Assembly: GCA_947470805.1 (NCBI GenBank)
Contig: CANIVU010000006.1
Span: 84,733-148,732 of the forward strand
Length of the DNA stretch: 64,000 bases
Source: Acidobacteriota bacterium
GTDB lineage: Bacteria > Acidobacteriota > Terriglobia > Bryobacterales > Bryobacteraceae
Reading direction: 5' to 3'
Each line of letters starts with the position of its first letter. Within the stretch, counting starts at the first letter, position 1. Below the pieces are notes generated by a model. That model saw only the letters and a program-made list of their open reading frames with translations. It was not told the origin of the DNA and did not search any database. This document shows positions 33,562 to 56,825 of this stretch, one piece after another. Made by a program: the position numbers and the translations under genes.

Positions 33562-33599
33562 CTTATGACAGGCGCTCAAAGTCGAAACTTCGTTACGGG

Positions 33600-36815: not shown

Positions 36816-36855
36816 CTATTCTGCCTGAAATGCGTGCCAAGCACCAATTTTCTCT

Positions 36856-37874: not shown

Positions 37875-37881
37875 ACACCCA

Positions 37882-38061
37882 CTAGTGGCAGGGGAAACCG
37901 TTGGCGTGACGCGTATCGTGCGTCGCGTTGTGGGCCGCGGAAGGCGTCGAGAACCCCACACAATAAAGCACAATCAACCCAAACCCAAGAACCGCAATCG
38001 CCGGCAGCCGCTCCGCCAGCGGAAGCGTTCTCGACGCGGGTATGGAAATAGAGTTATTCAA
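37882..38061 (-). CDS. cbtB: CbtB family cobalt transporter subunit
   Basis: This 59-residue protein was found by reading the gap between cbtA and the activator gene. A TTG start overlaps the stop of the activator gene, giving MNNSISIPASRT, a single membrane span (AIAVLGFGLIVLYCVGF) and the CbtB signature tail with a histidine series AAHNATHDTRHANGFPCH. It pairs with CbtA as the small subunit of the cobalt transporter. The short length and unusual start make it easy to miss. Confidence 0.9.
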   Translation of the reverse strand: MNNSISIPASRTLPLAERLPAIAVLGFGLIVLYCVGFSTPSAAHNATHDTRHANGFPCH

Positions 38062-38872: not shown

Positions 38873-39527
38873 GATAGTCGTCCCACAAATCCAGATAAAC
38901 GAAGTCGTGCGCCGATGCCTCCGGCCCCCACAACTCCCGCGCGCTGAACCGCACCGCGTACACATGCTGCCGCTTCGGCCCACGCCCATCGGCATTGGTA
39001 TCAGGGAAATTGTGTACCCCGTGGTCCCGGTCAATCACGCCCATCTTCCCGCGCGCATACCGCGGCAACCGCGTGTGCCCCAGCGGTTGTATGTTGAGTG
39101 CCCGCACCCGCTCACCGGCCCGAAACTTCGGCACAATCCCCGGCTCGTAGCTCGACGGAATGTTCCGGTTCAACGCCACCGCCGGCACCATCTCCGGTGT
39201 CAACGCCGGCGTCAGCCTCTCACTCCCTGCCGCCGCCCTTCCCGACTCCACTTCCTCGCGCGTCACCGTCCCCGTCTTGATCAGCAGCGTGACCATCCGC
39301 GTGAACCACTTTTCGTAGTAGCTCATGCGCAGGTACTCCGCCGGAGGAAGCATTTCAATAAAATACCGGCCGGTGTCGATATTCCATTTCCGCCAGGGTC
39401 CAAGCGCGCGCGTAATCGCGTAAACCCGCCCCTCCCAAACCTCGTGAAACACCGGCTCGGTCGCCTCCGGATCCTGCGGGACACGTCCAAAACCGTGCAT
39501 CCCCCCCATATCGTGGATGCCGTTCAT
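38859..39527 (-). CDS. nthB: Nitrile hydratase beta subunit
   Basis: The 222-residue protein begins [16 protein letters not shown], the near-invariant start of beta subunits, and has [39 protein letters not shown] and the C-terminal SH3-like part ([50 protein letters not shown]). It forms the heterodimer with the alpha subunit and shapes the nitrile pocket. The ATG overlaps the alpha stop by four bases. Confidence 0.97.
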
Positions 39528-40183
39528 TTCGCCACCTGCTTCGGAGACGCCAGGTTCTCCACGCCAATCATCGAATTCCGCGTCACCAGCGCAGCCAGCG
39601 CCGCCTCGTCCAGATCCTCCGTGCCCGCCGGACGTTCCGGAATCACCAGATAGCGAAGTTCAGCCGTACTATCCCACACCCGGACCTCAACATCAGCCGC
39701 CAGTTCCAGCCCAAACTCCTGCAACACCCCACGCGGATCAATAACCGCCCGGGACCGGTAGGCGTTCGACTTATACCAGGCCGGCGGCAGCCCCAGCACC
39801 GGCCACGGATAGCAGGAGCAAAGCGTGCAAACCACCACATTCTGGATCTTCGGAGTATTCTCCAGGGCAACCATATGCTCGCCCTGCACGCCCAGAAACC
39901 CAAATTCCGCAATCGCCGTCGACGCATCGGCCAGCAGACGCGCCTTATACGCCGCGTCCGTCCAAGCCCGCGCCACCACCCGCGCCCCGTTTCGCGGACC
40001 GACCTTATGTTCGTACGTATCAACCAGCGCATCCAGCGCCGCCGGGTCCACCAGCCCCTTCTCAACCAGCAGCGATTCAAGGGACTTCACCCGCAAACTA
40101 ATATCCGACGGGACCGTCTGATGTTGATGATCGGCCTGCTGGGCCTCACCGCCAGACGCGGACTCTGCTCCGGTAACGCTCAT
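39524..40183 (-). CDS. nthA: Cobalt-type nitrile hydratase alpha subunit
   Basis: The 219-residue product has the metal motif [14 protein letters not shown] with Cys119, Cys122, Ser123 and Cys124. Threonine at position 120 marks the cobalt type; iron enzymes have serine there. The substrate region [23 protein letters not shown] is also typical. Nitrile hydratase converts nitriles to amides in the cytoplasm. It is the first gene of a six-gene coupled operon: alpha, beta, activator, cbtB, cbtA and a small membrane protein. No amidase gene lies nearby. No clear ribosome site was seen before the ATG. Confidence 0.96.
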
Positions 40184-40285
40184 TGCGGCGATGAAACCTC
40201 ATCGGGATGGTTCAATGGAATTCTCCTGGCATCGCGTTAGAATCCGCCATCTTAGCAGGAATTCGAGGTACACGAGAATGAGCAA

Positions 40286-40314
40286 TTGACACTCGCCCCC
40301 TCCAACTCCATAAT
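40286..40314 (+). promoter_or_regulatory. Sigma-70-type promoter of the small membrane protein gene
   Basis: TTGACA is followed after 17 bases by CATAAT, a near-perfect consensus promoter. Transcription would begin near 40321, and AGGA eight bases before the ATG at 40337 serves as the ribosome site. Confidence 0.7.
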
Positions 40315-40336
40315 TCCAAGGAACAGGATCCCCCCA

Positions 40337-40756
40337 ATGGCCAATCCGCACCCCAAAATCGCCACCCCCTGGTACTTCTGGGCCGTCGCCGTCCTCGCGA
40401 TCGTCTGGAACGGTCTCGGCATCGTCCTCTGGGGCGGAACCACGTTCACGCCAACCAGCTTCCTCGAGGGCATGCCGCAAGCCCACCGCGATTACGTAAG
40501 CAGCCTCCCCCTCTGGAGCACATTCACTTGGGGCCTCGGCGTCATCGGCGGCACCGCCGGCTCCATCCTGCTGCTCCTCCGCCACCGTCTTTCGGTACCG
40601 GTATTCGCCGCCTCCCTCTTCGGCGCCGTGACAAACTCGCTCGTCTATGTCACCAACCCACCGCCGCCCGGCTTCTTCAATCCGGGGCTAACCCTCTTCA
40701 TCACCGGCTTCGCCCTCTTCCTTCTCTGGTTCGCCCACAGCAGACAGCAGCGCTGA
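40337..40756 (+). CDS. Four-span integral membrane protein, function unknown
   Basis: The 139-residue product has four hydrophobic segments (YFWAVAVLAIVWNGLGIVLW; TWGLGVIGGTAGSILLLL; VPVFAASLFGAVTNSLVYV; TLFITGFALFLLWF) and a polar loop HRDYVSSLPLWST. It resembles small inner-membrane proteins found in many Proteobacteria and Acidobacteria without known role. It is divergent from the nitrile hydratase operon and has its own consensus promoter. The 155 bases after it are AT-richer and hold no gene that could be supported. Confidence 0.75.
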   Translation: MANPHPKIATPWYFWAVAVLAIVWNGLGIVLWGGTTFTPTSFLEGMPQAHRDYVSSLPLWSTFTWGLGVIGGTAGSILLLLRHRLSVPVFAASLFGAVTNSLVYVTNPPPPGFFNPGLTLFITGFALFLLWFAHSRQQR

Positions 40757-40911
40757 AGCCCCTCCAAATTGCCCCCTGTGGAAAAGTCGGTCACAAGGCA
40801 AATGACTTTATTTTCAAACCGCTAACCCCCGCTTCCCCAAACACCTACAGCCAAATCCAAAAACCCCAAGCCGCCGGTTACTAGCCAACCCCTCCCTAGA
40901 CTAAAGGGAGT

Positions 40912-41526
40912 ATGGCACTTCAAAACCATTCCAATCGACGCGCCGAATCCGCCCGGATCAACGGCGCCAAAAGCCAGGGCCCGAAAACGCCCGAAGGCCT
41001 CCTCAAAGCAAGAACCAGCTCTCTAACCCATGGTCTCTTCGCAAACGAAGAAACCCTCAAAGCCTCGGTAAGCCAGGAAGGCTTCCTAAAGTTAAGGGAA
41101 TCCTTCTACAAATACTGGAACCCCGAAGACGAATACATCGCCACCCGTGTCGATGAACTCACCTTCGCCCACTGGGAACTGGCCCGATTGATGCTAGTCC
41201 GCCGCTCCGAACTAGCCGAACTCCACTTGAACACCGGCGGAGTCCTCCAAGCCGAACTAGAAGCCTGCAAACCCGGATCCCTGGTCTACCGCCTGGAGGT
41301 CAGAATCAATCGCCACCAGTCCACGATCTCAAGACTGGAACGCGACATCATGCGCCTAAAGAAATTCGCGGCCATGCAAGGACCCTCCCAAGAGTCATTG
41401 AAAACAAACGACGAGCCCGAAACGCCGCCGCCAACGGAGTCTGAAACCGCCGAAATCCCGGCCCCAACGCCGGCCCAAACCATCGTCAACAGCCCGCCCG
41501 CTGGCGAAATCCAGCCCGTAATGTAA
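40912..41526 (+). CDS. Protein of the NGAKSQGPKTPEG family, function unknown
   Basis: The 204-residue protein starts with ARINGAKSQGPKTPEGLLKART and SLTHGLFA, a signature found in many multi-copy proteins of Acidobacteria and Planctomycetes with no assigned role. The middle is helical (residues 60-160), the tail Pro/Glu-rich and probably disordered. It lacks a signal peptide. A TAGACT box nine bases before the ATG is a likely -10 element, leaving almost no leader. Its codon use is less GC-rich than its neighbours. Confidence 0.7.
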   Translation: MALQNHSNRRAESARINGAKSQGPKTPEGLLKARTSSLTHGLFANEETLKASVSQEGFLKLRESFYKYWNPEDEYIATRVDELTFAHWELARLMLVRRSELAELHLNTGGVLQAELEACKPGSLVYRLEVRINRHQSTISRLERDIMRLKKFAAMQGPSQESLKTNDEPETPPPTESETAEIPAPTPAQTIVNSPPAGEIQPVM

Positions 41527-41539
41527 CCCCAAAATGCCC

Positions 41540-41561
41540 GGACCACACCCGAAGTGTGTCC
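41540..41561. terminator. Possible bidirectional hairpin between convergent genes
   Basis: GGACCACAC and GTGTGTCC pair with one bulged base in the 47-base gap between two convergent genes. There is no T-run on either strand, so termination here is only suggested. Confidence 0.3.
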
Positions 41562-41573
41562 AAAGATTCGGCC

Positions 41574-42974
41574 CTACGCCAGCATCTTCGTCGCCACCTT
41601 CCCCGCCACATCCGTCAGCCGGAACGGCCGCCCGCCATACATAAAAGTCAGCCGGTCATGCTGCAGCCCCATCAAATGCAGCATCGTCGCGTGCATGTCG
41701 TTAATGTGCATCCGGTCCTCGACCGCGTAATACCCAAACTCATCCGTCGCCCCATACACAAACCCCTTCTTCACCCCCGCCCCGGCCATCCACATCGAGT
41801 ACCCATACGGGCTATGATCCCGCCCATCCCCGGCCTCGGCAATCGGCGTCCGCCCAAACTCGCCACCCCAAATCACCAGCGTCTCCTCCAACAACCCGCG
41901 CGCTTTCAAATCCGTCAACAACCCCGCAATCGGCCGGTCCACCGCCAGCGCCGTCCGCGTATGCAGCCGAACAAGCTCACTATGCGCATCCCAACCCACC
42001 TCGTTCCCCGGCCCATACTCGTGGTTAATCTGGATGAACCGCACATTCCGCTCCGCCAACCGCCGCGCCATCAAACACTGCCACCCGAAATCAGCCGTCT
42101 CCGGCGCGTCCATCCCGTATAACTTCTTAGTAACTTCACTCTCTTTACTAACATCAAACGCCTCCGGAGCCTCCGTCTGCATCCGGAACGCCAACTCAAA
42201 ACTCTGTATCCGCGCCTCCAACTCCGGGTCCTGCTGCCGTCGCGCCGCGCTCGACGCATTGATCTTCTGAATCATGTCCAACTCATACCGCTGCTGCTCC
42301 GCCGTCAGCCCATAATTCTTCAAATGCTCAATCGGCTCGTTGATATTCTCAATCGCCATCCCGCCCAGCCCCACCGCCGTGCCCTGATACGCCGCCGGCA
42401 AAAATCCCGAACTCCACTTCTTCGCCCCGCCATGCGACAACCCCGGCTTCAAAGTAATATACGCCGGTAAGTTCCGATTTTCCGTCCCCAGCCCGTAAAT
42501 CACCCACGACCCCATACTCGGCCGAGTAAATGTATTCGACCCCGTATGCAGCTGCAACGTCGCCCCGCCATGCGCGACACTGTCCCCAACCATCGAACGA
42601 ATCACACACAAGTCATCGGCGTGCCGCGCCACATGCGGGAATAACTCGCTGATCTCAATCCCGCTCTGCCCGTGCTTCTTGAACTCCCACGGCGACTTCA
42701 ACAACCCCTGCACATTGTTCTCCGCGAACGTCAGCGGCCGCTTAAACGGCAACGGCTTCCCGTGATCGCGAATCAACCGCGGCTTCGGATCAAATGTGTC
42801 CAAATGCGACGGCCCGCCATGCATGAACATGAAGATCACGCGCTTGGCCTTCGCCGGAAAATGCGGAGCCCGTGCCGCCAGCGGATTCGCCGCCTCCGCC
42901 ATCAGCCCCTGCAGGCCCATCAACCCGAACCCGCACGCCGCCCGGCGCAACAAATACCGACGCGATACTGACAT
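41574..42974 (-). CDS. DUF1501 domain-containing exported protein
   Basis: The ATG of MSVSRRYLLRRAACGFG is preceded by GAGGGA and opens a Tat-like leader. The 466-residue product has the sulfatase-related DUF1501 fold: KRVIFMFMHGGPSHLDTFDPKP, VIRSMVGDSVAHGGATLQLHTG, VIWGGEFGRTPIAEAGDGRDHSPYGYSMWMAGAGVKKG. Role unknown; it is almost always the partner of a PSD1 cytochrome protein, encoded here just upstream with eight bases between stop and start. Confidence 0.93.
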   Translation of the reverse strand: MSVSRRYLLRRAACGFGLMGLQGLMAEAANPLAARAPHFPAKAKRVIFMFMHGGPSHLDTFDPKPRLIRDHGKPLPFKRPLTFAENNVQGLLKSPWEFKKHGQSGIEISELFPHVARHADDLCVIRSMVGDSVAHGGATLQLHTGSNTFTRPSMGSWVIYGLGTENRNLPAYITLKPGLSHGGAKKWSSGFLPAAYQGTAVGLGGMAIENINEPIEHLKNYGLTAEQQRYELDMIQKINASSAARRQQDPELEARIQSFELAFRMQTEAPEAFDVSKESEVTKKLYGMDAPETADFGWQCLMARRLAERNVRFIQINHEYGPGNEVGWDAHSELVRLHTRTALAVDRPIAGLLTDLKARGLLEETLVIWGGEFGRTPIAEAGDGRDHSPYGYSMWMAGAGVKKGFVYGATDEFGYYAVEDRMHINDMHATMLHLMGLQHDRLTFMYGGRPFRLTDVAGKVATKMLA

Positions 42975-42982
42975 AAGTTCCC

Positions 42983-45529
42983 TCACGGCACGTAGATAAA
43001 ATCGTTCGACGCAATCAGCGTCCGGCACAGGCTCGCCCACGCCAGCAGCCGCCCCTCATCGTTCCCCGGCAACTTCGGGAACCCGGCCATATACGCCAAA
43101 CTCCCCTGCACCTCGCCCGCCCCCGGCGTCCGGCCCAACACCGTCTCCCACGCCTCGCGCACCCGCCCGGCATCGTCCGTCCCGCTCTTCAGCAGCTTCG
43201 AGGCCAGCGCCCGCGACCGCTCTGTCACAAACTTGCTGTTCATCATATACAGCGCCTGCGGAGCCACGTTCGTCTGCTCCCGGATTTCCGTCGAAGTCGT
43301 CGCATCGCCAAAATCAAACAGCGTAAACAGCGTCGACAAATTCGACCGCCGCAACGGCAGATACACCGTCCGGCGCTTGGAATCATCCGGGTGCATCGAC
43401 TTACGCGCATCGCTAAACTCGTTGTCCGTCCCCGTCCCGCTCGTCAACGCCCCGCCCATCGCCAGGTCCAGGCTCCCGTCCAACAACAACAGCGAATCCC
43501 GAATCTCCTCCACCGTCTTCCGCCGCATAGGAAACCTCGTCCACAACCGGTTATCGGCGTCTTTCTCGGCGTTCGCCGCCGAAGTCTCCCCGCTCATCTG
43601 GTAGGCCTCGGAAGCCATAATCAGCCGGTGCATCGCCTTGAACGACGAGCCCCGCCTCACAAACTCCGCCGCCAGCCAGTCCAGCAATTCCGGATGCGTC
43701 GGCCGCTCCCCCGCCACCCCGAAGTTACTCGGCGTCCGCACCAACCCCTGCCCAAAATGTCCCTGCCAGATCCGGTTCACCATCACCCGCAACGGCAGCG
43801 GATGCCCGCCATCGGCCATCCAGTTGGCAAGCTCACGCCGCCCGCTCCCAGCCCGCACCGCGGTTTGATTCCCCCCTGCCAGCACCACCGGAAACTGCTT
43901 GGCAACCAGGTCCCCCTTCGCCTCCGGGTTCCCCCGCACGAACACGTGCTGGTCGACAGACTTATCCTCCGCAACCCCGCAAGCAAACGGCGGCTCAACC
44001 GGCGCCGCGGCCTGAACGGCCTTCAACTCCGTCTTCAACTTCGCCACCGCCTCGGAGTCCTTCTCCGGCAGCCCCAACGGCCCCTTCGCCGCCACAACTT
44101 CCGTATAAAACCGGTTCAGCCCCGCCGGAAACTTCGGCGCCTCTTTCAAAATCCCGGCCTTGAAATCGGCCTGCGCCTTCTCCCGCCGCGCCACCTCGGC
44201 AAAGTAGTTCGCCTGATACGCCGCCGCGTCGCCATTCTTATACCAGTCCTCCAGGTGAATCCGGCGCTCCTTGTTCGGCTTCAAGTAAGCAACCCACCGC
44301 GCCAGCACCGCCGCGTCCAACGACGCATCCACCGCCCCCGTCTTCGCCGCCAACATATACCGCGCAATGTCCGGCGCCAGCCGCTCCCGCCACTTCCGCG
44401 CCTCCGCCGCCACCGCGCCATCAATCTCCTTCTGCTTCTCCGCCACCCGCTTCTGGTGCGCGTTCCACGGCTCCAACTCGGCCTTCCCCGCCAGCGGCAC
44501 ATAGAACAGCTTCGACACTGTTCCCTCGATCTGCTCAAACTGCCGCGTGCTCGCAAAGATCGAAGCCAGCGAGTAATAATCCTTCGTCGTCACCGGGTCA
44601 AACTTATGGTCATGGCACCGCGCGCAAGAAATCGTCAGCCCCAGAAACGCCTTCCCGACCACGTCAATCTGTTCATCGACGGCGTCATAGAACATCTTGA
44701 CCTTGTCCTGTTCGGCAACTAACTTTGGCCCCAGCGCCAGAAACCCGGTTGCGATGATGCCAGCCGTGTTCACCTCCTGCCCCGCCGGCGGCGGCAACAG
44801 GTCGCCCGCAATCTGGTTCCGCACAAACTCCGGAAACGGCATGTCCCGGTTGAAGGCGTCGATCACCCAATCCCGATACTTCCACGCATGCGGATACCGG
44901 TAGTCCTCATCGGCCCCCGTCGAATCGGCATACCGCGCCACGTCCATCCAATGCCGGCCCCACTTCTCGCCATACCGGGGAGAAGCCAGAAACCGCTCCA
45001 CCGCCGCCGCAAACGCCCCCGGCGAGATGTCGGCCATAAACAACCGCACGTCCTCCGCCGTCGGCGGCAAGCCAGTCAGGTCAAACGCCGCCCGGCGCAA
45101 CAGCGTCAATCGGTCCACCGGCCCCGCCGGCGTCAACCCGCGCTCGGCCCGCCTGGCGCGCAAAAACTCATCGATCGACTTCCCCGTCCCCGGCTTCAGC
45201 GGCTGAAACGCCCAGTGATCGGTACCGCCTTTGGAAACAGTCTTCGGCCAAGGCGCACCGGCGCGAGCCCATTCGCTCAACGCGCCCAACTCGTCGCCCT
45301 TAAGCTTCCCGGTGGGCGGCATCTTCACCTTGCCGTCGTATGAAATCGCCGCAGCCAGCCGTTCAGCGGCCTTCGAAACACCCACCCCGCTGGCAAAGTC
45401 GACGCCCGCCATCGCCGCCGTCCCCGAGTGGCAAGCGAGACACTTCGCCGCCAGCACCGGCCGCACCCGTTCTTCGAATCCCGCCTGTCCCCAGGCGCAC
45501 ACCGCGAACAGCAGCAAATAGCGCATCAC
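42983..45529 (-). CDS. PSD1/DUF1549/DUF1553 exported protein with haem c motifs
   Basis: The 848-residue protein has a short signal peptide (MRYLLLFAVCAWG) and a CLACHSGTAAM haem motif. DUF1549 follows (RLTLLRRAAFDLTGLPPTAEDV, GRHWMDVARYADS) with a second motif CARCHDHKFDP, and DUF1553 ends the protein (RRELANWMADGGHPLPLRVMVNRIWQGHFG; RRSNLSTLFTLFD). The GTG start is favoured over the ATG one codon later because TACACT lies six bases before it. The protein probably works with the DUF1501 partner outside the cytoplasm on polymers, but the reaction is not established. Confidence 0.93.
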   Translation of the reverse strand: MMRYLLLFAVCAWGQAGFEERVRPVLAAKCLACHSGTAAMAGVDFASGVGVSKAAERLAAAISYDGKVKMPPTGKLKGDELGALSEWARAGAPWPKTVSKGGTDHWAFQPLKPGTGKSIDEFLRARRAERGLTPAGPVDRLTLLRRAAFDLTGLPPTAEDVRLFMADISPGAFAAAVERFLASPRYGEKWGRHWMDVARYADSTGADEDYRYPHAWKYRDWVIDAFNRDMPFPEFVRNQIAGDLLPPPAGQEVNTAGIIATGFLALGPKLVAEQDKVKMFYDAVDEQIDVVGKAFLGLTISCARCHDHKFDPVTTKDYYSLASIFASTRQFEQIEGTVSKLFYVPLAGKAELEPWNAHQKRVAEKQKEIDGAVAAEARKWRERLAPDIARYMLAAKTGAVDASLDAAVLARWVAYLKPNKERRIHLEDWYKNGDAAAYQANYFAEVARREKAQADFKAGILKEAPKFPAGLNRFYTEVVAAKGPLGLPEKDSEAVAKLKTELKAVQAAAPVEPPFACGVAEDKSVDQHVFVRGNPEAKGDLVAKQFPVVLAGGNQTAVRAGSGRRELANWMADGGHPLPLRVMVNRIWQGHFGQGLVRTPSNFGVAGERPTHPELLDWLAAEFVRRGSSFKAMHRLIMASEAYQMSGETSAANAEKDADNRLWTRFPMRRKTVEEIRDSLLLLDGSLDLAMGGALTSGTGTDNEFSDARKSMHPDDSKRRTVYLPLRRSNLSTLFTLFDFGDATTSTEIREQTNVAPQALYMMNSKFVTERSRALASKLLKSGTDDAGRVREAWETVLGRTPGAGEVQGSLAYMAGFPKLPGNDEGRLLAWASLCRTLIASNDFIYVP

Positions 45530-45535
45530 TAAAGA

Positions 45536-45541
45536 AGTGTA
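45536..45541 (-). promoter_or_regulatory. Putative -10 box (TACACT) of the PSD1 gene, leaderless type
   Basis: Read leftward, TACACT is followed by six bases and the GTG start codon. No ribosome site is present. Confidence 0.45.
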
Positions 45542-45645
45542 AAGGATTTAATCCCGTCCCGCCGCACAGGACCACAGCCTCCCAACCCGGCCGCCCCCGC
45601 AGCCAAGCAGTCAGGACCCCACCAAACCGGTAGCACCGTGCCCAT

Positions 45646-45821
45646 CCCGTCCGCACAACTCGCCGTCAAGCTCCGCCAACCCAACCGCCCGCACGATCCG
45701 CGGACAAACACGCACCCCTACGAAGCCCCGCGAGCCCCGCGCGACGCAACCCGTCCGCACAACTCTCCGTCAAGCTCCGCCAACCCAAAGGCCCGCACGA
45801 TCCGCAGACAAACACGCACCC
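45646..45821. repeat. Two 72-base direct repeats, 104 bases apart
   Basis: Unit 1 is 45646-45717 and unit 2 is 45750-45821; they differ at four positions, counted by eye, and are separated by 32 bases of C-rich sequence. Both begin CCCGTCCGCACAACTC and end GACAAACACGCACCC. On the minus strand both units can be read as a similar peptide (RIVRA.GLAELDGELCGR), which may point to a decayed coding repeat. No terminal inverted repeats or transposase are seen. Confidence 0.85.
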
Positions 45822-45872
45822 TAACCGGGGTCGCACAAACCTTGCCTAGCGCACGCCGCCGCCGTCCAGGGC

Positions 45873-46550
45873 TTAGTTTCCGGTCGCCGTAACCGCCGGC
45901 TTCTTCGTGATCGAATAATCCAGGTATTTGATGATCAGCTCGGTCGTCCCCAGGAAACGCACATCCGCCGTCGATTGGTTCAGCGACGAATACCACAGGT
46001 CGCCCACCTTCCGGAACTCCTGCACCACATACGCACGGCCCACCAGCCACGACATATTTCGCGTCGTCCGGCCCTCCATCCGCACCATGGCCATATCCTT
46101 CATGTTTACGCAACCACGCCCATCGAACGTGAACCGCGTCCGCTTCCGCGCCACCAACTCAAACATCTGACAGCCCGCGCCCTTGGCCGCGTCGCCGGTC
46201 AACGGCCGCAACTCATAGTTATTCGCGTTGACGTTGCCGTCCCGGTCCTTTTTTGCCGCCGCCGCCACTTCGCCTTCCACAATCCGCGTCAGAATCGTCT
46301 TCCGCAGCCCCTCGGCGTTGGTCTTCAAAATCTCGAAACGCTTACTGCCATCGGCGGACGTAATCATCCGCACGTCCATCGTCGCGTCTTCTTTCCACCG
46401 GGCGTTTCGCACGGCGTACTGGCGAGTCGACCGCACCTCATGCACCTGAGCGTCCCGCTGGCGCTCGGCCTGGGCGATCAACGACGCCAGCTCCGCTTCT
46501 CCAGCGGCGGCGACGGACGCGCACAACAGCCCAATAGCCAGTCTTACCAC
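45873..46550 (-). CDS. Exported protein, outer-membrane-lipoprotein-sorting-like, function unknown
   Basis: A GTG start was chosen because it opens the signal peptide (VVRLAIGLLCASVAAAG) and has TATGGT six bases upstream. The 225-residue mature protein is rich in beta strands (ADGSKRFEILKTNAEGLRKTIL; KRTRFTFDGRGCVNMKDMAMVRMEGRTTRN) reminiscent of LolA/LolB-like or MucB-like open barrels. Two cysteines may pair. No firm family was recognised. It is divergent from ridA over a 39-base gap. Confidence 0.65.
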   Translation of the reverse strand: MVRLAIGLLCASVAAAGEAELASLIAQAERQRDAQVHEVRSTRQYAVRNARWKEDATMDVRMITSADGSKRFEILKTNAEGLRKTILTRIVEGEVAAAAKKDRDGNVNANNYELRPLTGDAAKGAGCQMFELVARKRTRFTFDGRGCVNMKDMAMVRMEGRTTRNMSWLVGRAYVVQEFRKVGDLWYSSLNQSTADVRFLGTTELIIKYLDYSITKKPAVTATGN

Positions 46551-46556
46551 GTGCCA

Positions 46557-46583
46557 ACCATAGCAGGTTTTTTCCGATACGAT
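46557..46583. promoter_or_regulatory. Back-to-back -10 boxes for two leaderless genes
   Basis: TATGGT (46557-46562, leftward) and TACGAT (46578-46583, rightward) each lie six bases before their start codon. The two promoters overlap within 39 bases, so the genes cannot easily be transcribed at the same time. The strand-composition switch of the window falls here. Confidence 0.5.
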
Positions 46584-46589
46584 GTTGCG

Positions 46590-47036
46590 ATGGACGAGAA
46601 GAAGAAAACGCAAGCCCGCCGCGCGCTGCTGTTGGCCGGCGCCGGAGCCGGTTCGCTGATGGCCCAGCCCAAGGGCGATTGGTCGCCAAAGAAACAGATC
46701 GCCGGCGGCCCGGTCCGCTCCGGCCACCTTCTGTTCCTCAGCGGCATCGGCGGCTGGTATCCGGAACGGCGCCCCAAGGCCGGCGACATCAAGGAGCAGA
46801 CGGCCGACGCGCTCACCATCATGAAGGAGTCGCTCACCAAGGCCGGCTCGTCGATGGAGAACGTCCTGAAGGTCCAGGTTTCGCTGGTCGATCCGGAGAA
46901 AAACTGGGACGCCATGAACGACGTCTACAACACCTTCTTCGTGAAGGACCGGCCGGCGCGCTCCTACTTCGGCACCACCGGCTTCCGCCGGCCGGGCCAG
47001 TTACTCCAGATTGATTGTATCGCCTACGTCGACTAA
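46590..47036 (+). CDS. Exported RidA-family protein
   Basis: The 148-residue protein carries an N-terminal leader with paired arginines (QARRALLLAGAGAGSLM), suggesting Tat export, and a RidA/YjgF body: VRSGHLLFLSGIGGWYP, EQTADALTIMKESLTKAGSSMENVLKVQVSL, YNTFFVKDRPARSYFGTTGF with the usual arginine, and LLQIDCIAYVD. Cytoplasmic RidA removes reactive enamines; exported versions are common in this group but their role is unclear. It stands alone between divergent and convergent neighbours. Confidence 0.87.
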   Translation: MDEKKKTQARRALLLAGAGAGSLMAQPKGDWSPKKQIAGGPVRSGHLLFLSGIGGWYPERRPKAGDIKEQTADALTIMKESLTKAGSSMENVLKVQVSLVDPEKNWDAMNDVYNTFFVKDRPARSYFGTTGFRRPGQLLQIDCIAYVD

Positions 47037-47044
47037 CTTGCTAC

Positions 47045-47950
47045 TTACTTGAAATTACTGTACGGCCCGGCGTCCTTCCAGTTCGTCAAGCTCAAGCCCT
47101 CGCTGTCCCATACCACCGTGCCACCGGCGATGGTCAGCACGCAGCGCAACTCGCCGTTGGCGGAGAGCTTGGAATTCGACGAATCCAGGTACGCCGCCGG
47201 GCCCTTGCGCATTTCCAAGACCGCGATGTCGGCCGCGCCACCAACGCTGAGCGTCCCCAACTCGGGATGGCCGATCGCCTTGGCGCTGTTCACTGTGGTC
47301 CGCGCCACCACCTGCTCCAGCGTCAGGCCCATGGCCAGAAACTTCGACATGACGTTGGTCATGTTCGCCCGCGGCAACATCAGGCTTTGCCGGTTCAGGT
47401 CCGTCGAGATCGTGTCCGGCAACAAGCCCGCCTTCACCACCGGCACGGCCACCTTGAACAGAAAACCATCGGAGCCGTGGCCCACGTCGAGCAGGACACC
47501 GCGCTTCCGCGCCGCCGCCAGATCCGTTCCCGGCTTGCCGTAGATGTGCGTGAGGATGTCGCCCGCCTTCAACCCGTCAGGCGACTGGCTGGTGCGCACT
47601 CCGGTGACGATCCGGAGCTTCGGATGCTCTTCGCCCTCCTTGGGAGCGGATGGCAGCGCGACGGTTGTCACTCCGGCGCGCAGGGAGTTGTGTTCTTCGC
47701 TGGGGTGGGACTGGATGTCGATCAAGCCCGGCGTCACCACGTAGTCGCTCAGGTCAACCACGCGGCGCGCGTGCGCGGCCGGGATGCCTTTGGCGATCTT
47801 GCTGATCTTGCCGGCGGTGATGCCGATATCGAGCCGTTCGTTCCGCCCGTTCTTCGGGTCCAATACCTGGCCACCCTTGAGCAGCAGGTCGTAGATGTCC
47901 TGGGCGCCCAGGGGCGCGAGCAACGCCGCCAACAGCAGTCCCGTTCTCAT
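47045..47950 (-). CDS. Shortened exported amidohydrolase paralogue lacking metal ligands
   Basis: The 301-residue product has a signal peptide (MRTGLLLAALLAPLGAQ) and clear similarity to the upstream gene (LLLKGGQVLDPKNGRNERLDI; PGLIDIQSHP; RGVLLDVGHGSDGFLF; LLPDTISTDLNRQS; GGAADIAVLEM). The first metal motif HxH is changed to QSH, and about 80 residues holding the bridging lysine and the second histidine pair of the upstream paralogue are absent. Catalysis as a binuclear enzyme is therefore unlikely. It is coupled to its paralogue by ATGA. Confidence 0.8.
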   Translation of the reverse strand: MRTGLLLAALLAPLGAQDIYDLLLKGGQVLDPKNGRNERLDIGITAGKISKIAKGIPAAHARRVVDLSDYVVTPGLIDIQSHPSEEHNSLRAGVTTVALPSAPKEGEEHPKLRIVTGVRTSQSPDGLKAGDILTHIYGKPGTDLAAARKRGVLLDVGHGSDGFLFKVAVPVVKAGLLPDTISTDLNRQSLMLPRANMTNVMSKFLAMGLTLEQVVARTTVNSAKAIGHPELGTLSVGGAADIAVLEMRKGPAAYLDSSNSKLSANGELRCVLTIAGGTVVWDSEGLSLTNWKDAGPYSNFK

Positions 47951-49146
47951 TGGTTCCACTCCTTGGCTCCGCGGCCTTCGAGGTCGAACACCTCTTCCCC
48001 GCCCCGGACGGTGTAGATGCATTCCAGCTTCTGCTTACCGAGGTACTTGTGCTGCCAGGCATCCTTGAAAGCAAAGACGCCGTCGCGTAAGCGGAACACG
48101 GCCACATCGGCGATCTGGCCTTCACCCATCGTTCCGATCTCCGGAAAACGGCCGATGGACTTGGCCGGGTTCATGGTGGAACGGAGGATTGCGTCCTGCA
48201 GTTTCATGCCGAGATTGAGCATCTTCGAGATGCAGTTGGCCATGTCGCTTTCGGCCATCATGATGCTGGAGGAATGGAGGTCGGTGGAGATGGTGTCGGG
48301 GTAGAAGCCCTGGGCCATGGCCTTGGTCGCCACGGGCCAGAGGAAGCTGCCGCCGCCGTGCCCCAAATCGAAGAGGACGCCGCGGGCGCGGGCTTCGGCC
48401 ATATAGGGCTGCACTTTGCCGGAGACACGATCGACCACTTCTAACTGCCGGTCATTGAACACATGGGTGTGCATGTCGCCGGGTCGTAACTTCCCGAGTA
48501 ACTTATCCTTACTCGTGCGGCCGGTGAGAGTGAAGATTTTGTCATCCACCATGACCGGCACTTTGGCGATGTTACCGGCGGCGATGGCGCGGTCGATGGC
48601 GGTCCAGCCGTTGCCGCCGAAGTGGGCGGTTTTGATGCCGACGATGTAGGTGCGGCGGTCGAGGATCTTGGCTGCGGTCTTCTCCGGCTCCATGTCCTCG
48701 GTGTTGTCTTCGAAGGCCGTGCCGACCATACCGTGGCCGACAATATTGATCAGCGAAAGCACTCGCGTTTTCGAGGTTTTGATGACCTTTTCGAGCATCT
48801 CATCGAAGGTCCGCCAGCCGGCACCGCCGGCGTCGACGATGGTGGTGGTCCCGGCCGGCAGCGCGGTGTCATCGGGATGAATCGACCCGCTGTAGCCGAA
48901 GACGTGGGCATGGAGATCGATGAGGCCGGGAGTTACGTAGAGGCCTTTGGCGTCGACGACTTTCTTTGCATCGGAGGCCGGGATGTTACTCGCTACGCGG
49001 GCGATCTTGCCGCCGGAGATAGCGACGTCCATAACGGCGTCGATGCGATTGGCCGGATCGATGACGTGCCCTTGCCGGATGACCAGATCATAGCGGGGCT
49101 GGGCCCAGGCGGCGAGAGCGAGAACAAACGGGAGGAACCGCTTCAT
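47947..49146 (-). CDS. Exported dihydroorotase-like amidohydrolase
   Basis: The ATG at MKRFLPFVLALAAWAQ has a strong CGGAGGAG site and overlaps the previous stop by four bases. The 399-residue enzyme keeps all metal ligands expected for the D-aminoacylase/dihydroorotase group: DLHAHV, a lysine in YIVGIKTAHFGG, the pair GDMHTHVF, LFDLGHGGGSF and the aspartate in TISTDLHSSS. It probably hydrolyses a cyclic amide or N-acyl compound in the periplasm. It lies between a SelA-like gene and its shortened paralogue in one unit. Confidence 0.88.
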   Translation of the reverse strand: MKRFLPFVLALAAWAQPRYDLVIRQGHVIDPANRIDAVMDVAISGGKIARVASNIPASDAKKVVDAKGLYVTPGLIDLHAHVFGYSGSIHPDDTALPAGTTTIVDAGGAGWRTFDEMLEKVIKTSKTRVLSLINIVGHGMVGTAFEDNTEDMEPEKTAAKILDRRTYIVGIKTAHFGGNGWTAIDRAIAAGNIAKVPVMVDDKIFTLTGRTSKDKLLGKLRPGDMHTHVFNDRQLEVVDRVSGKVQPYMAEARARGVLFDLGHGGGSFLWPVATKAMAQGFYPDTISTDLHSSSIMMAESDMANCISKMLNLGMKLQDAILRSTMNPAKSIGRFPEIGTMGEGQIADVAVFRLRDGVFAFKDAWQHKYLGKQKLECIYTVRGGEEVFDLEGRGAKEWNQ

Positions 49147-50687
49147 GCGCTCCTCCGGGCGGACCACTTGGCCTTTCCGTACTCGCCGAGGTCGAGGTCG
49201 CCCGACATGGTTTCGCCTTCCACGCGGCCGTTGAAACCGTATGGCAGCGACTGGCCGCCGATGGGCAGCGCGGAGTGGAAGGCTACTTTATCCCCGTCAA
49301 TGGATCCGTTCAGCCGGCCTTCGAGCGCCCAGCCCATATGGGTGCCGGTCACCTTGTTGCCCTTGGCGTTGAGGAACAGCTTGTGGTTGGCGGAGCCGGT
49401 GATGTAGGTCACGGCCACTTCCCAGCGGCCAGACAGGTCCGCAGCGGGGGGCGCGATGGCGGCTTTGGCGCGGCCTTTCGGGGCTTCGCGGAAGATGGCG
49501 GCAAGGCGGGTGGCGACGATCTTGTAATCGTCGGGCCGGAGGGCGACGGGACGGATGACGAAGGAGTTGCCTTCGCCGGAGGCGTGGGAGGCGATACGCG
49601 GTTCGCCGTCGGAGAGGAGTTTGCCGACTTCGCCGGCGGTGAGGCCGATCACGGCCGGATCCCAACTGACAGTGAGGGTCGGGAACGGGCCGCCGCGGGC
49701 GGGCGGGTTGACCTTGGTCTTGACGCCGGGAACGGCGGAGACGGTGGCGCCGATGTGCGAGTACCAGCCGTCCCACTCCTTGAACTCCGCCTGCATGTTG
49801 CGTTTTTTGACGAAGATCTCGGCGGCGACGACCATGCCGACGATCTCCTCTTTGCTGACCTTCATGGCGCGACCGAAGGCGTGGTGGGGGGCGCTGTTGG
49901 CCCAGGCTGCCTGGACGAGATCCTTCCGGCCGACGAGCAAGCCGGCGGTGGAGGGACCGCGGAGGATTTTGCCGCCGCTGTAGGCGACCAGATCGGCGCC
50001 GAGGGCGAGGTAAGGGTTGGGGACGATGAGGTAATCCGCAGCCGCGTCGACCAGGATGGGGATGCCGGCTTTTTTGGCGATGGGCGCGACTTCTTTGAGG
50101 CCGAACTTGGCGCCGCCGAAGTGTTCGCCGAGGATCTGGATCATCGCCGTGCGGGGACCGATGGCGGCTTCGAGTTCGGCGACCGAGTTCACTTCGACGA
50201 TCTCGACGCCGACGGTGCGGGTGGCGTGATCGTAGACGTTGCGGGACTCCTTCGGCATGATGACCTGATTCTTCAGGCCGCGCATGTCGGGAAGTTGTTG
50301 CATCTTTTCCGGGTCGGCGCCGACGATGCAGGCGACGGTGGCGTGGGTGAGCGCGGCGGCGGCGCCAGAGGTGACAATACCCCAGGGGACCTGCAGAACT
50401 TCGGCCAGGCGCGCCGAGGCCTTCTCCATCAGTTCGTCCATGTTGACGTGGAACTGGGAGGCCTGTTCGATGGCCGCGATCACTTCGGGGAGGAGCCGCG
50501 AGCCGCCGTTGATGGTGAGCGTGGCGGTGGTGTTGATAAAGGGCCGGACGCCCAGACGGGTGTAGACGTCCGGTGTTGGCGCGGTGGCGGCCGGAGCCGC
50601 AACCGGAGTGGCGGCCAGGAGGGCCGCGGCGCTGAATAAGTCTCGCCGGTCGAAGCCGGCCTTGGAGCCCTTTTTGGTGGAGTGCAT
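49143..50687 (-). CDS. Exported SelA-like PLP enzyme with C-terminal beta domain
   Basis: The 514-residue protein has a Tat leader (FDRRDLFSAAALLAATP), then a fold-type I PLP domain like SelA and D-glucosaminate-6-phosphate ammonia-lyase: YTRLGVRPFINTTATLTINGGSRLLPEV, VTSGAAAALTHATVACIVG, ILVDAAADYL and the PLP lysine in YSGGKILRGPSTAG. Residues 420-514 form an added beta domain (SGRWEVAVTYITGSANHKLFL). No selenocysteine genes are nearby, so an ammonia-lyase or racemase-like role with the following amidohydrolases is more likely. AAAGGGGGAAG precedes the start. Confidence 0.85.
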   Translation of the reverse strand: MHSTKKGSKAGFDRRDLFSAAALLAATPVAAPAATAPTPDVYTRLGVRPFINTTATLTINGGSRLLPEVIAAIEQASQFHVNMDELMEKASARLAEVLQVPWGIVTSGAAAALTHATVACIVGADPEKMQQLPDMRGLKNQVIMPKESRNVYDHATRTVGVEIVEVNSVAELEAAIGPRTAMIQILGEHFGGAKFGLKEVAPIAKKAGIPILVDAAADYLIVPNPYLALGADLVAYSGGKILRGPSTAGLLVGRKDLVQAAWANSAPHHAFGRAMKVSKEEIVGMVVAAEIFVKKRNMQAEFKEWDGWYSHIGATVSAVPGVKTKVNPPARGGPFPTLTVSWDPAVIGLTAGEVGKLLSDGEPRIASHASGEGNSFVIRPVALRPDDYKIVATRLAAIFREAPKGRAKAAIAPPAADLSGRWEVAVTYITGSANHKLFLNAKGNKVTGTHMGWALEGRLNGSIDGDKVAFHSALPIGGQSLPYGFNGRVEGETMSGDLDLGEYGKAKWSARRSA

Positions 50688-50759
50688 AGACTTCCCCCTT
50701 TGTGTGGTGCGGTCGTTTAATAGAGTCTACTTCAAATGGAGCTCCTGTTGAATCGGCGG

Positions 50760-52127
50760 CTATCGCTTTCGGAAGCGAAAGGCAGGCGGCAAAATGTTAC
50801 CTGTTTCCCATGAGATGGAGTTGTACTGTAGGTCCTGATGCCTGCTAAGCTCAATAGTAGAGGTACCCGTCGGAGGATTGGGGGAATGGACAATAAAGCG
50901 ATTGCTCCTGACTTCCCTCATGTTCGCGATCGCAATCGATGACTGGTTCGATTGAGAAGGAGTAAAGTGAACAGTATTTTCAAAGAACGAAACGCGGGCG
51001 GGTTGGAGAGGCGAGTACAGAGAAATTCCGTGCTCGACGTAGATTGTGTTTCCGCGAAACTCAATCGATTGCAAAGCAGCAATTCTGCCGGCCTGCAACG
51101 GGCCAAAGGAAATACCACGCCGTCCTGAGAAGACGAAAGTGGAATGTTCCGTCGTGGACACAGCGGAAGCGGCGACGTAGGCGACCGGTTCGGTATCGTC
51201 GCGCGTGGCCTGAATCAGGCTTCGAGAAACGACAAACGAGTCGACATGCCCTGGCCAAATACAGGTGAGCTGAGCCCCCATGTTCTCTGAAAACACACAC
51301 TCTTCAAAACGCAGGTCTCCGGTCATGACATCCTCGTCGGGCGTCGTCCTGACGGGTTCGATGTCGACACCGGCCGAGGGTTCATGGCGTCCATAACTCC
51401 CACCGGTCCGGCCCGTGTCGGCAAAGGTGCATCGAATGAACCGCCCCGTGCGCAACTGGATTATCGACAGACCCTGGCGGCCGTTGTTCCGCAGGCGAAC
51501 ATCCTGCACGAGCGCTTCGCGGTCGGCGATGGTGCTGTTGCCACCGAGGGTGATTCCGTCGGTTGGAAAGTGATGAATGTGCAGATTTTCGAGACGATAC
51601 CGGCGGCAGTTCGTCGTCAGAATGCCGGCGCCGCCGCCTTCGACGACGCCCGAGTCGCGGGTCATTTGATCCACGTTGCCGTTGAGCTCAAACCCGGAGA
51701 TCACAAAATCGGAACTATCGATCATTTCGAATGGAGTTACACCGATGTAGTCACTTTCAGCGAGCCGGCCCTGCCTTCTTGCCGCGGGCCGGTGAAAGTC
51801 TCCTTTTACATCAATGGTCGCGCCATTGCCGGAGATGGTGACACCGTGACAGGCGCGAAAGACGATGTTGGCGGTGGGGTTCTTTCGAGCACCTCGAAGG
51901 ATCCGGAAGCGATCAATCCGATACACCCCTGGCGGAAACCAGAGAGTGGAGCCCTCCGGCATCCTGCATAGCTGTTGGGCGGCCCGGACAAGGGCCGGAT
52001 AGTCATCGGTGACTCCATCGCCGACCGCGCCAAGACTCTTCACATTCAGGGTCTGCCCCTGCTGTGGCATAGCGTGCACCGTTGCGCGCGCACAAATAAG
52101 CACAACCAAAAGACTAAGTAAGGACAT
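50760..52127 (-). CDS. Exported right-handed beta-helix (pectate-lyase-superfamily) protein A
   Basis: The start at MSLLSLLVVLICARATVHA gives a signal peptide and a 455-residue protein. The mature part begins LNVKSLGAVGDGVTDDYPALVRAAQQLC, the signature of the Pectate_lyase_3/polygalacturonase-like group, then runs through parallel beta-helix coils (GVTISGNGATIDVKGDF; FVISGFELNGNVDQM; LENLHIHHFPTDGITLGGNS). It is a paralogue of the divergent gene to its right, sharing these blocks in the same order. Depolymerisation or epimerisation of the exopolysaccharide made by the neighbouring cluster is a plausible role. Confidence 0.85.
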   Translation of the reverse strand: MSLLSLLVVLICARATVHAMPQQGQTLNVKSLGAVGDGVTDDYPALVRAAQQLCRMPEGSTLWFPPGVYRIDRFRILRGARKNPTANIVFRACHGVTISGNGATIDVKGDFHRPAARRQGRLAESDYIGVTPFEMIDSSDFVISGFELNGNVDQMTRDSGVVEGGGAGILTTNCRRYRLENLHIHHFPTDGITLGGNSTIADREALVQDVRLRNNGRQGLSIIQLRTGRFIRCTFADTGRTGGSYGRHEPSAGVDIEPVRTTPDEDVMTGDLRFEECVFSENMGAQLTCIWPGHVDSFVVSRSLIQATRDDTEPVAYVAASAVSTTEHSTFVFSGRRGISFGPLQAGRIAALQSIEFRGNTIYVEHGISLYSPLQPARVSFFENTVHFTPSQSNQSSIAIANMREVRSNRFIVHSPNPPTGTSTIELSRHQDLQYNSISWETGNILPPAFRFRKR

Positions 52128-52146
52128 TGACCTATGCACTGTTCTC

Positions 52147-52185
52147 TTTATACCGACGAAAGTCTGATAGACAGCAGAAAGTCTG
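52147..52185. promoter_or_regulatory. Promoter and repeat region between the beta-helix genes
   Basis: Leftward TATAAA (52152-52147) suits the -10 box of protein A. Just behind it are two direct repeats GAAAGTCTG (52158-52166 and 52177-52185), 19 bases apart, each able to form a small palindrome (GTCTgatAGAC, CAGAaagTCTG). The spacing of nearly two helix turns suggests a regulator binding site between the divergent genes. Confidence 0.45.
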
Positions 52186-52287
52186 CGCCAAGACCGGACC
52201 GTTGAAAGAGACAGGATGTAGTCGGCGCAGCGACGCACATTCGATCCGGAAACAGTGAATCCGGCAGTAATCAAGGAGATCATGTTC

Positions 52288-53721
52288 ATGAATCGAATCC
52301 AATTCATTACGGGACTTTTCAGTTTGTGTGTTATCCAGGCCATGACGGCCGCGACGGCACTCAATGTCACGCAATTTGGGGCGAAGGGAGACGGCGTTAC
52401 AGACGATTACGCCGCTCTACAGGCAGCCGCCACGGCAGTCTGCAAAACACCGGGCGCCACCCTGGTATTTCCTCCAGGAACCTACAAAATCGATCGTCAT
52501 CGCGTGGTGGGCGGCGCGAAGAAGAATACGACGAAAGATATCCAGTACACCAACTGCAACGGCGTGACGATATCCGGATACGGAGCAAAGATTGATGTTC
52601 AGGGCAATTTTGCGCGCAACCCCGATGTGTACCCGACCTCGGCGTATGCCGTGAGCTACGACGAAGGGATCATTCCCTTCTTTATGCTAAACTCCACGGG
52701 CTTCACGATCAGCGGCTTCGAACTCGATGGCAACGTCGATCAGATGAGCCGGTCGCCGATCGTGATTGAGGGAATGAACGCGGGGGTACTGACGAGAAAC
52801 TGCAACAACTACCAACTGCTCGACTTGTACATCCACCACTTCCACACGGACGGCATTAGCCTGGGTCACGGGTCGACGGTGGCCGATACGGGGGCGACAC
52901 TCACCAATATCACCGCGAAAAACAATGCGCGGCAAGGATTATCCGTCCTACAGGTGCGGGGAGCAAAGATTGACAGCAGTCTGTTCAGCGACACCGGCGT
53001 CACGGGCAACTACGGCATGCACTCGCCTGGAGCAGGCGCGGACGTGGAACCGGAACGGACTCCTCCGGCAGTAAACGTCAAGACCGGCCTGATTGAATTC
53101 ACCAACTGCCGGTTCGAGGAGAATCTGGGTTCCCAGTTCATCTCCACGGTCCCGAGCCGGGTGGAATCGGTCACTGTGCGCAACTCGGTGATCCGGGCGA
53201 CGCGGGCGGGTGCCGACCCAGCCGCCTATCTGAATGCAGCAGCGACGTCGGTAAATACCGGGAACACCTTTTACCTGGCCGCGCAGAAGGCGATCGTTCT
53301 AGGCCCGACCAGCGCTGTGCACTATCCGTCGCTGGTCCAAGCCACGTACTCAGGGAACACGATCCAGGCATCCGACCGGTTTGGAATCTATCCTCCGATC
53401 CAGTATGCGCCGGTAGATTTTGTCGGCAACACGGTCACCGTCACGCCGGTAGCGCCGGAGAAGGCGTTCCTCATGTTCTCCAACATTAACCGGGCGTCCG
53501 CCAATACGTTCAACCTGGCGGCCTCCGGATATGCGGGGAACACCGGAACACTACCCTATGCGATCGTCTACATGGGAGTGAAGACGGTTACGGGCAATCA
53601 ATACACAACTAACTTGACCAGTCCTAAGTCGTTCTACACGATCTACTACGGACCGGGCATGCAAGTCTCCGCCGAAGCGTTCCTGACCGGGACGACCTTC
53701 AAGGGACTTACCATCCAGTAG
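52288..53721 (+). CDS. Exported right-handed beta-helix (pectate-lyase-superfamily) protein B
   Basis: AAGGAG nine bases upstream sets the start at MNRIQFITGLFSLCV. The 477-residue product has a signal peptide and begins LNVTQFGAKGDGVTDDYAALQAAATAVC, followed by helix coils GVTISGYGAKIDVQGNF, FTISGFELDGNVDQMS and YIHHFHTDGISLGHGS. The last 120 residues are Thr/Asn-rich coils. It is clearly paralogous to protein A, and the two are transcribed away from a shared 160-base region. It converges with the polysaccharide operon. Confidence 0.85.
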   Translation: MNRIQFITGLFSLCVIQAMTAATALNVTQFGAKGDGVTDDYAALQAAATAVCKTPGATLVFPPGTYKIDRHRVVGGAKKNTTKDIQYTNCNGVTISGYGAKIDVQGNFARNPDVYPTSAYAVSYDEGIIPFFMLNSTGFTISGFELDGNVDQMSRSPIVIEGMNAGVLTRNCNNYQLLDLYIHHFHTDGISLGHGSTVADTGATLTNITAKNNARQGLSVLQVRGAKIDSSLFSDTGVTGNYGMHSPGAGADVEPERTPPAVNVKTGLIEFTNCRFEENLGSQFISTVPSRVESVTVRNSVIRATRAGADPAAYLNAAATSVNTGNTFYLAAQKAIVLGPTSAVHYPSLVQATYSGNTIQASDRFGIYPPIQYAPVDFVGNTVTVTPVAPEKAFLMFSNINRASANTFNLAASGYAGNTGTLPYAIVYMGVKTVTGNQYTTNLTSPKSFYTIYYGPGMQVSAEAFLTGTTFKGLTIQ

Positions 53722-53744
53722 CTAGCGCCTCCCCCCCGCCGCGA

Positions 53745-55643: not shown

Positions 55644-55660
55644 ATGATCCGCCTTTCCTA

Positions 55661-56821: not shown

Positions 56822-56825
56822 AGTT

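What the first reader, a model, noticed from the sequence alone, without database searches (positions are those of the whole stretch)
46300..46800. Abrupt inversion of strand composition at about 46.55 kb
The top strand is C-rich to the left and G-rich to the right whatever the gene direction. Hand counts on 60-base lines: 16021-16080 (+ gene) C 28, G 10; 43081-43140 (- gene) C 32, G 11; 47641-47700 (- gene) G 25, C 15; 53161-53220 (+ gene) G 24, C 18. The switch lies within a few hundred bases of the 39-base divergent promoter at 46551-46589. C-rich to G-rich is the sign change of a replication origin. It could also be the edge of a chromosomal inversion or a chimeric assembly join. No dnaA, DnaA-box cluster or AT-rich unwinding element was seen.
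Basis: partly seen in the sequence, partly recalled or inferred. Interest (0 to 1): 0.72.

Follow-up and report, generated by a model that had tools for sequence, protein, structure and literature searches.

The report
Bacterium with likely ~100 replication origins
The strand-composition switch near 47 kb is real and is one of 19 alike in the 1.5 million bases examined of this bacterium's 8.7-million-base genome, which suggests that its chromosome is likely copied from about a hundred starting sites, where bacteria are thought to use only one.

Summary
The switch is real: top-strand GC skew is -0.29 over 1-46550 and +0.12 over 47591-64000, with the best change point at 47.5-47.6 kb. It is not unique. 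In 1.52 Mb of the same 8.7-Mb draft genome (Bryobacterales, Acidobacteriota) 19 C-to-G switches alternate with 19 G-to-C switches (about 109 C-to-G by extrapolation). Four-fold sites reach about +/-0.7 in genes of both strands. C-to-G switches are narrow (median 4.3 kb), G-to-C broad (9.7 kb; p about 2e-4), a sawtooth like human N-domains. The dnaA locus, with the only DnaA-box cluster found, sits on one C-to-G switch; the other 18 have no cluster. A relative at about 88% DNA identity keeps the window's switch. At two other switches, gene order and DNA run unbroken through the site in two congeners that lack the sign change, so those arose in place, not as inversion edges or misjoins. Best reading: many initiation zones gained in place (inferred; no replication data). 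Against it: no motif, no gene co-orientation, weak skew in spacers, mixed asymmetry in congeners, and one switch in a relative exactly where gene order breaks. Rivals: polar gene conversion; a scrambled single-origin chromosome.

The parts
46500..48000 (.). C-to-G polarity switch zone (predicted initiation zone)
   Evidence: change point 47531 on all bases, 47.59 kb on 4-fold and spacer sites; per-gene gradient
1..46550 (.). C-rich domain of the top strand, skew -0.289; it continues left of the window to about C6:84 kb
47591..64000 (.). G-rich domain of the top strand, skew +0.124, with a dip to about 0 at 51-54 kb; ends at the contig end
46551..46589 (.). 39-base spacer between divergent genes, left edge of the zone
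45873..46526 (-). ORF of 217 aa without Pfam match; 4-fold top-strand skew -0.44
46590..47036 (+). RidA-type protein (Ribonuc_L-PSP); 4-fold skew -0.31; ortholog in G003 +0.56 in the same frame
47045..47950 (-). amidohydrolase 1, gene in which the change point falls; 4-fold skew -0.12; G003 +0.53
47947..49167 (-). amidohydrolase 2; 4-fold skew +0.50; G003 +0.45
49143..50687 (-). class-V aminotransferase-like PLP enzyme; 4-fold skew +0.56; G003 +0.41
42983..45526 (-). PSCyt2/PSD1 protein in the C-rich domain; 4-fold skew -0.67

Best explanation
The switch near 47 kb is likely one of about a hundred places in this bacterium's chromosome where two replication forks would start and move apart. Shown: a strand bias independent of gene direction alternates along the 1.52 Mb read; C-to-G switches are narrow and G-to-C switches broad in this genome; and at two sites the switch lies in unbroken DNA whose congeneric counterpart lacks the sign change. 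Inferred: the strand made as leading strand gains G over C, as in most bacteria, so each narrow C-to-G switch would be an initiation zone and each broad G-to-C zone the stretch where neighbouring forks usually meet. Since 18 of 19 zones have no DnaA-box cluster, initiation there is predicted to be DnaA-independent (for example recombination-, R-loop- or transcription-linked), with zones gained and lost in place within the genus.
For: 19 C-to-G and 19 G-to-C switches in 1.517 Mb; median widths 4.3 and 9.7 kb, p 1.8e-4, and p 9e-5 to 1e-3 over nine settings. 4-fold skew independent of gene strand, up to about +/-0.78; the same dependence on surrounding skew for both strands in G017, G003 C1 and G014 C1. 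Narrow zones: 4-fold amplitude 0.30 within 0.5 kb of C-to-G points, 0.59 at 2-4 kb, 0.67 at 8-12 kb; slower around G-to-C points, 0.27 to 0.52. The one dnaA locus, with the only cluster of 3 DnaA boxes within 500 bp in the 1.52 Mb, has its change point in or beside dnaA (C36:26285, support 26276-26823); by density alone a switch within 1 kb of a given place has a chance of about 2.5% (my arithmetic). In short spacers the G-rich strand is also T-rich (AT skew -0.14), the usual leading-strand signature (recalled). C5:52965 and C10:64981: genes colinear on both sides in G003 and G014, DNA alignable in one piece through the switch in 4 of 4 comparisons, no sign change in the relatives. G010 keeps the three switches that its fetched stretches cover: window, dnaA, C9.
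Against: No replication data. No shared k-mer, DnaA-box or consistent AT-rich signal at the other 18 points. Genes are not co-oriented with the G-rich strand: 314 with, 345 against, of 659 genes that passed the filters. Skew in spacers of at most 300 bp is 0.18 against 0.66-0.72 at 4-fold sites, odd for a plain mutational bias. The transition asymmetry is weaker in a sign-flip test on 40 blocks (p 0.013) and mixed in congeners (2 of 5 stretches positive, 3 negative). In G010 contig C12 skew turns from C- to G-rich at about 18 kb, just where its colinearity with C10 ends, and at C3:12340 shared gene order with the congeners also ends at the switch: junction-like cases. Only one genome was studied in depth, from its ten largest contigs plus C36.
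Confidence: 0.45

Rival explanations
1. Scrambled single-origin chromosome: many inversions and translocations have shuffled segments that keep the leading/lagging polarity of their old place, so the switches are rearrangement junctions.
For: Gene order between G000 and congeners is scrambled and ortholog polarity uncorrelated (36 reciprocal pairs, rho -0.12). Shared order with congeners ends at or within about 1 kb of the switch at C3 and in the window, and near it at C4. In G010 C12 a switch coincides with the end of colinearity with C10. A paralogous receptor-like family, possible recombination substrate, is near 4 of 19 C-to-G points against 7% of random points. Aberrant bacterial skews have been traced to flips at repeats (PMC7111523, passages).
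Against: C5:52965 and C10:64981 lie in colinear DNA in two congeners without the sign change. In the window and at C4 polarity changes inside genes intact in congeners. Junctions should be equally sharp in both directions, but widths differ.
Confidence: 0.2
2. Recombination hot spots with strand-polar gene conversion: breaks or strand entry at fixed spots lead to heteroduplex of one defined strand on each side, and unequal repair of G:G and C:C mismatches would pull the invading strand towards C, giving opposite skews on the two sides without any origin.
For: The bias is mostly G versus C and mostly in conserved coding sites: 4-fold 0.66-0.72, spacers 0.18; G/C differences are 595 of 1675 4-fold differences between G000 and G010 (my sum from the table). 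4-fold G+C is 0.88-0.90 against 0.57 in spacers. Switches can appear in place without sequence change. Poor repair of C:C mismatches is recalled, not looked up.
Against: The dnaA origin behaves like the other switches. Domains stay flat for 40-50 kb (for example C5), not decaying. Spacers show the G+T signature usual for leading strands.
Confidence: 0.2
3. Transcription- or codon-driven skew: blocks of genes in one direction, or long transcripts, make the pattern.
For: 4-fold AT skew follows gene strand (+ negative in 8 of 8 bins, - positive in 7 of 8), and - genes are slightly more positive in GC skew in each bin.
Against: GC skew is nearly the same for + and - genes in each bin, and gene strand is not tied to domain sign.
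Confidence: 0.03
4. Assembly chimeras: contigs of short-read origin wrongly joined at the switch.
For: Draft genome of 220 contigs without a recognisable SSU rRNA.
Against: G010 shows the same genes and switch; per-gene gradients cross the switch; similar alternation in congeners.
Confidence: 0.02

Closest known systems
Human replication skew N-domains (PMC3320577, passages read)
   Same: Upward skew jumps read as changes of fork polarity at initiation zones, with gradual decline between them
   Different: Bacterium; domains of tens of kb, not megabases; 4-fold skew up to about 0.7; no replication timing data
Multi-origin archaeal chromosomes (described in PMC3269012, passages)
   Same: Several skew polarity changes on one chromosome
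   Different: A few origins there, about 109 C-to-G switches extrapolated here; no initiator gene beside the window's switch
Bacterial chromosomes proposed to have several origins from skew (Xia 2012, passages; Gao 2015, whole text in two parts)
   Same: Inference of more than one origin from composition
   Different: Those cases have few or noisy switches and Gao's two-origin cases rest on DnaA boxes; here switches are strong, many and mostly without box clusters, and two are shown to have arisen in unrearranged DNA
Canonical bacterial oriC beside dnaA
   Same: Same direction of skew change; this genome's dnaA locus has it too
   Different: The window's switch has no dnaA, no DnaA boxes within 1 kb and no AT-rich element beyond background
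Bacterial genomes with aberrant skew caused by flips at repeats (PMC7111523, passages)
   Same: Local inversions of cumulative skew
   Different: Two switches here lie in DNA colinear with relatives that lack the sign change

Membership tests
Canonical DnaA-dependent oriC | Cluster of DnaA boxes at the switch | tested here: not met
   No box (up to 1 mismatch) within 1 kb of the window's switch; only cluster of 3 in 1.52 Mb is at dnaA
Canonical DnaA-dependent oriC | dnaA or other replication gene adjacent | tested here: not met
   Neighbours are RidA, amidohydrolases, a PLP enzyme, PSCyt2/PSD1; dnaA is on C36
Canonical DnaA-dependent oriC | AT-rich unwinding element | tested here: not met
   Highest AT over 50 bases within 600 bp is 0.62 against a background median of 0.56 and 95th percentile of 0.64
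Multi-origin chromosome | Several C-to-G polarity switches independent of gene strand | tested here: met
   19 in 1.52 Mb; + and - genes nearly alike
Multi-origin chromosome | Forks shown to start at several sites | not testable with these tools
   No reads or replication data are held
Skew N-domains | Sharp upward jump, gradual decline | tested here: inconclusive
   Met in G000 (p about 2e-4; p 0.013 in the block test), mixed in congeners (2 of 5 stretches positive)
Scrambled single-origin chromosome | Gene order broken at the switch relative to kin without it | tested here: inconclusive
   Not met at C5 and C10; in the window the break is at about 46.55 kb but the change runs inside the intact cluster to its right; C4 partly, C3 break at the switch; G010 C12 junction-like
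Strand-polar gene conversion | Same strand bias absent from new mutations but present in fixed differences | not testable with these tools
   No population data

The most novel reading that the evidence does not exclude
A genus of Bryobacterales copies its chromosome in a eukaryote-like way, from about a hundred mostly DnaA-independent initiation zones some 30-90 kb apart that arise and vanish in place without any recognisable sequence, and its alternating strand composition is the fossil record of that programme.
Probability: 0.38. Interest if true: 0.97.

Novelty: new variant of a known kind. Interest (0 to 1): 0.86.

Why it matters
A recent review states that in all bacteria initiation is restricted to a single origin per chromosome, and argues why (PMC10331603, passages). 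A bacterial genus with about a hundred fork-polarity switches would break that rule; if instead the cause is strand-polar gene conversion, GC skew can be built without replication. Either outcome would change how skew is used to find origins, estimate growth from peak-to-trough coverage and check assemblies, and the coordinates here make the question testable.

Tried and rejected
Shared k-mers at the 19 C-to-G points: the best P values (about 1e-6 for 10-mers to 4e-3 for 6-mers) are no better than the number of k-mers tested would give. DnaA-box clusters or AT-rich stretches: none beyond background outside dnaA, except one point (C6:15057) at the 95th percentile of AT. tRNA genes or Rfam families at gathering score in the window: none. 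Sequence similarity among the 19 flanks: only four, sharing a paralogous family that I take for TonB receptors (recalled; not scanned); near 4 of 19 C-to-G and 1 of 19 G-to-C points against 7% of random places. Convergent gene ends: 6 of 19 by my reading, against 189 of 1143 neighbouring pairs; not pursued, as the small sense-strand C bias would draw change points there. rpoB as a co-orientation test: sense-strand skew is within 0.06 of zero except G014 (0.12), and for G000 and one G010 fragment the longest frame was not the gene's, so the sign is unsure. SSU rRNA: no match in the draft. A midpoint rule for G-to-C zones was judged by eye only and decides nothing. Literature: no paper held 'GC skew' with 'Bryobacterales', with 'sawtooth' and 'bacterial genome', with 'multiple switches' or with the terms; 8 hold 'GC skew' and Solibacter, of which I saw passages of PMC3174227 only, which mention no such pattern; the figures are not held. 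SkewDB (PMC8941118) was seen only as the start of its abstract in a listing.

Full report
What was checked. The window is G000:C6:84733-148732, the right end of a 148,732-bp contig of a draft genome of 8,706,545 bases in 220 contigs. The nearest named relatives by DnaA (60-62% identity) are Bryobacterales/Acidobacteria draft genomes; the window's own record may be left out of that list. Raw skew is -0.289 left and +0.124 right. The best change point is 47.53 kb on all bases and 47.59 kb on 4-fold and spacer sites, about 1 kb right of the divergent spacer.

It is one of many. Eleven contigs, whole or in part (the ten largest and C36, which was taken because it holds dnaA), 1,516,944 bases in all, were read. 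Each shows both signs, with raw skew of about 0.2-0.4 either way in stretches of tens of kb. At a threshold of 0.4 and 3-kb smoothing there are 19 C-to-G and 19 G-to-C switches: 12.5 C-to-G per Mb, or about 109 if the rest of the genome is alike (extrapolation). Eight within-contig C-to-G spacings run from 28 to 88 kb.

It belongs to the DNA strand, not to genes. Of 858 genes called in the first 1.12 Mb, 740 passed a score filter; their 4-fold top-strand skew follows the skew of the flanking 12 kb from about -0.75 to +0.75, nearly alike for + and - genes. Of 1,154 genes called in 1.52 Mb, 659 passed the filters for a co-orientation count: 314 with and 345 against the G-rich strand. 4-fold AT skew follows gene strand instead. 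In spacers of at most 300 bp the G-rich strand is G- and T-rich, but only by 0.18 and 0.14. That weakness is unexplained and is the best point for the conversion rival.

Shape. C-to-G switches have median width 4.3 kb and G-to-C 9.7 kb (p 1.8e-4; p 9e-5 to 1e-3 over nine settings). 4-fold amplitude rises from 0.30 within 0.5 kb of a C-to-G point to 0.59 at 2-4 kb and 0.67 at 8-12 kb, and more slowly around G-to-C points, 0.27 to 0.52. A sign-flip test on 40 blocks is weaker (p 0.013), though 10 of 11 contigs agree in sign. In five stretches of congeners two are positive and three negative. The sawtooth is therefore counted for this genome only.

Relatives. G010 (84-93% identity in the larger aligned blocks) keeps the window's switch, and its stretches aligned to the dnaA and C9 switches change sign there too. 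Against the origin reading, its contig C12 turns from C- to G-rich at about 18 kb, where its alignment to C10 ends. Congeners G003, G014 and G017 have alternating skew, mostly of lower amplitude. In the stretches read, G024 (another genus of the family) is weak and G028 (another family of the order) flat. Gene order between G000 and G003, G014, G017 is scrambled and ortholog polarity uncorrelated (36 pairs, rho -0.12).

In-place switches. Five C-to-G sites were compared with congeners. At C5:52965 and C10:64981 the genes on both sides keep order and orientation in G003 and G014, and DNA aligns in one piece through the switch itself in four of four comparisons (in G014 at C5 a second piece covers the left end). 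G000 changes from -0.57 to +0.35 and from -0.68 to +0.20 (p about 1e-29 each). The relatives give -0.61/-0.51 (G014) and -0.57/-0.15 (G003; p 1e-5, same direction, no sign change) at C5, and -0.54/-0.46 (G003) and +0.02/-0.17 (G014) at C10. At C4:116686 the genes under and right of the switch are intact; G014 is uniform, G003 graded the same way (+0.09 to +0.40, p 2e-3), and the left side is not clearly orthologous. In the window the RidA, amidohydrolase, amidohydrolase, PLP-enzyme cluster is intact in G003 with one polarity (+0.54/+0.43), while G000 (-0.18/+0.54) and G010 change inside it; left of 46.55 kb nothing is shared with the G003 stretch. At C3:12340 shared order ends at the switch, so it decides nothing. 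Two clean cases of five exclude a local junction there; the others are open.

What marks the sites. dnaA, with boxes at 25070-25258 and 26604-26616 of C36 (0-based), has its change point at 26285; it is the only cluster of three boxes within 500 bp in 1.52 Mb. The other 18 points have 0 or 1 box within 1 kb and no common k-mer. Of the 19, 13 fall inside called genes; coding fraction is 0.86.

Mechanism. The sign of the change, the G+T signature of spacers, gene-strand independence, the like behaviour of the dnaA origin and switches gained in unbroken DNA fit fork polarity changing at many initiation zones. That step is inferred. Lack of co-orientation, weak spacer skew, absent motifs, mixed asymmetry in congeners and the junction-like cases count against it. 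Polar gene conversion explains the coding/spacer contrast better, but not the flat 40-50-kb plateaus or the dnaA coincidence. Scrambling explains the mosaic of orthologs and the junction-like cases, but not the in-place switches.

Known ground. Xia 2012 (passages) and Gao 2015 (whole text) proposed bacterial chromosomes with several origins from composition. Goodall 2023 (passages) states a single origin in all bacteria. Chen 2020 (passages) reports skews up to 0.4 in complete bacterial genomes, so the amplitude here is high but not unheard of, and traces 5 of 12 aberrant patterns to flips at repeats. None of the passages seen describes about a hundred switches; my searches for such a report found none in this open-licence library.

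Noticed in passing
window 47045-49167: Two adjacent amidohydrolase genes, paralogous to each other, next to a RidA gene; the same cluster is intact in congener G003.
   Followed up: partly
4-fold sites against spacers, 1.52 Mb of G000: Skew is 0.66-0.72 at 4-fold sites but 0.18 in spacers of at most 300 bp, while codon positions 1 and 2 barely respond: the strand bias is concentrated in coding DNA although it ignores gene direction.
   Followed up: partly
G017:C1 at about 12 kb (L092): Raw skew drops abruptly from +0.38 to -0.04, a sharp G-to-C edge unlike those of G000; perhaps an insertion or rearrangement.
   Followed up: no
G010:C12 at about 18 kb (L230): A C-to-G switch just where colinearity with G000 C10 ends.
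   Followed up: partly
rpoB loci L111-L117: Skew around rpoB is near zero in most of the 7 genomes of the genus searched (G014 0.12), despite strong skew elsewhere.
   Followed up: partly
window 14741-17083: TPR-CHAT protein of 780 aa.
   Followed up: no
window 53745-63447: Run of polysaccharide-type genes: Polysacc_synt_2, DegT aminotransferase, PhyH, two glycosyltransferases.
   Followed up: no
G001-G024 dnaA search: Several congeners have extra short matches to the DnaA ATPase model besides full dnaA, which G000 lacks.
   Followed up: no
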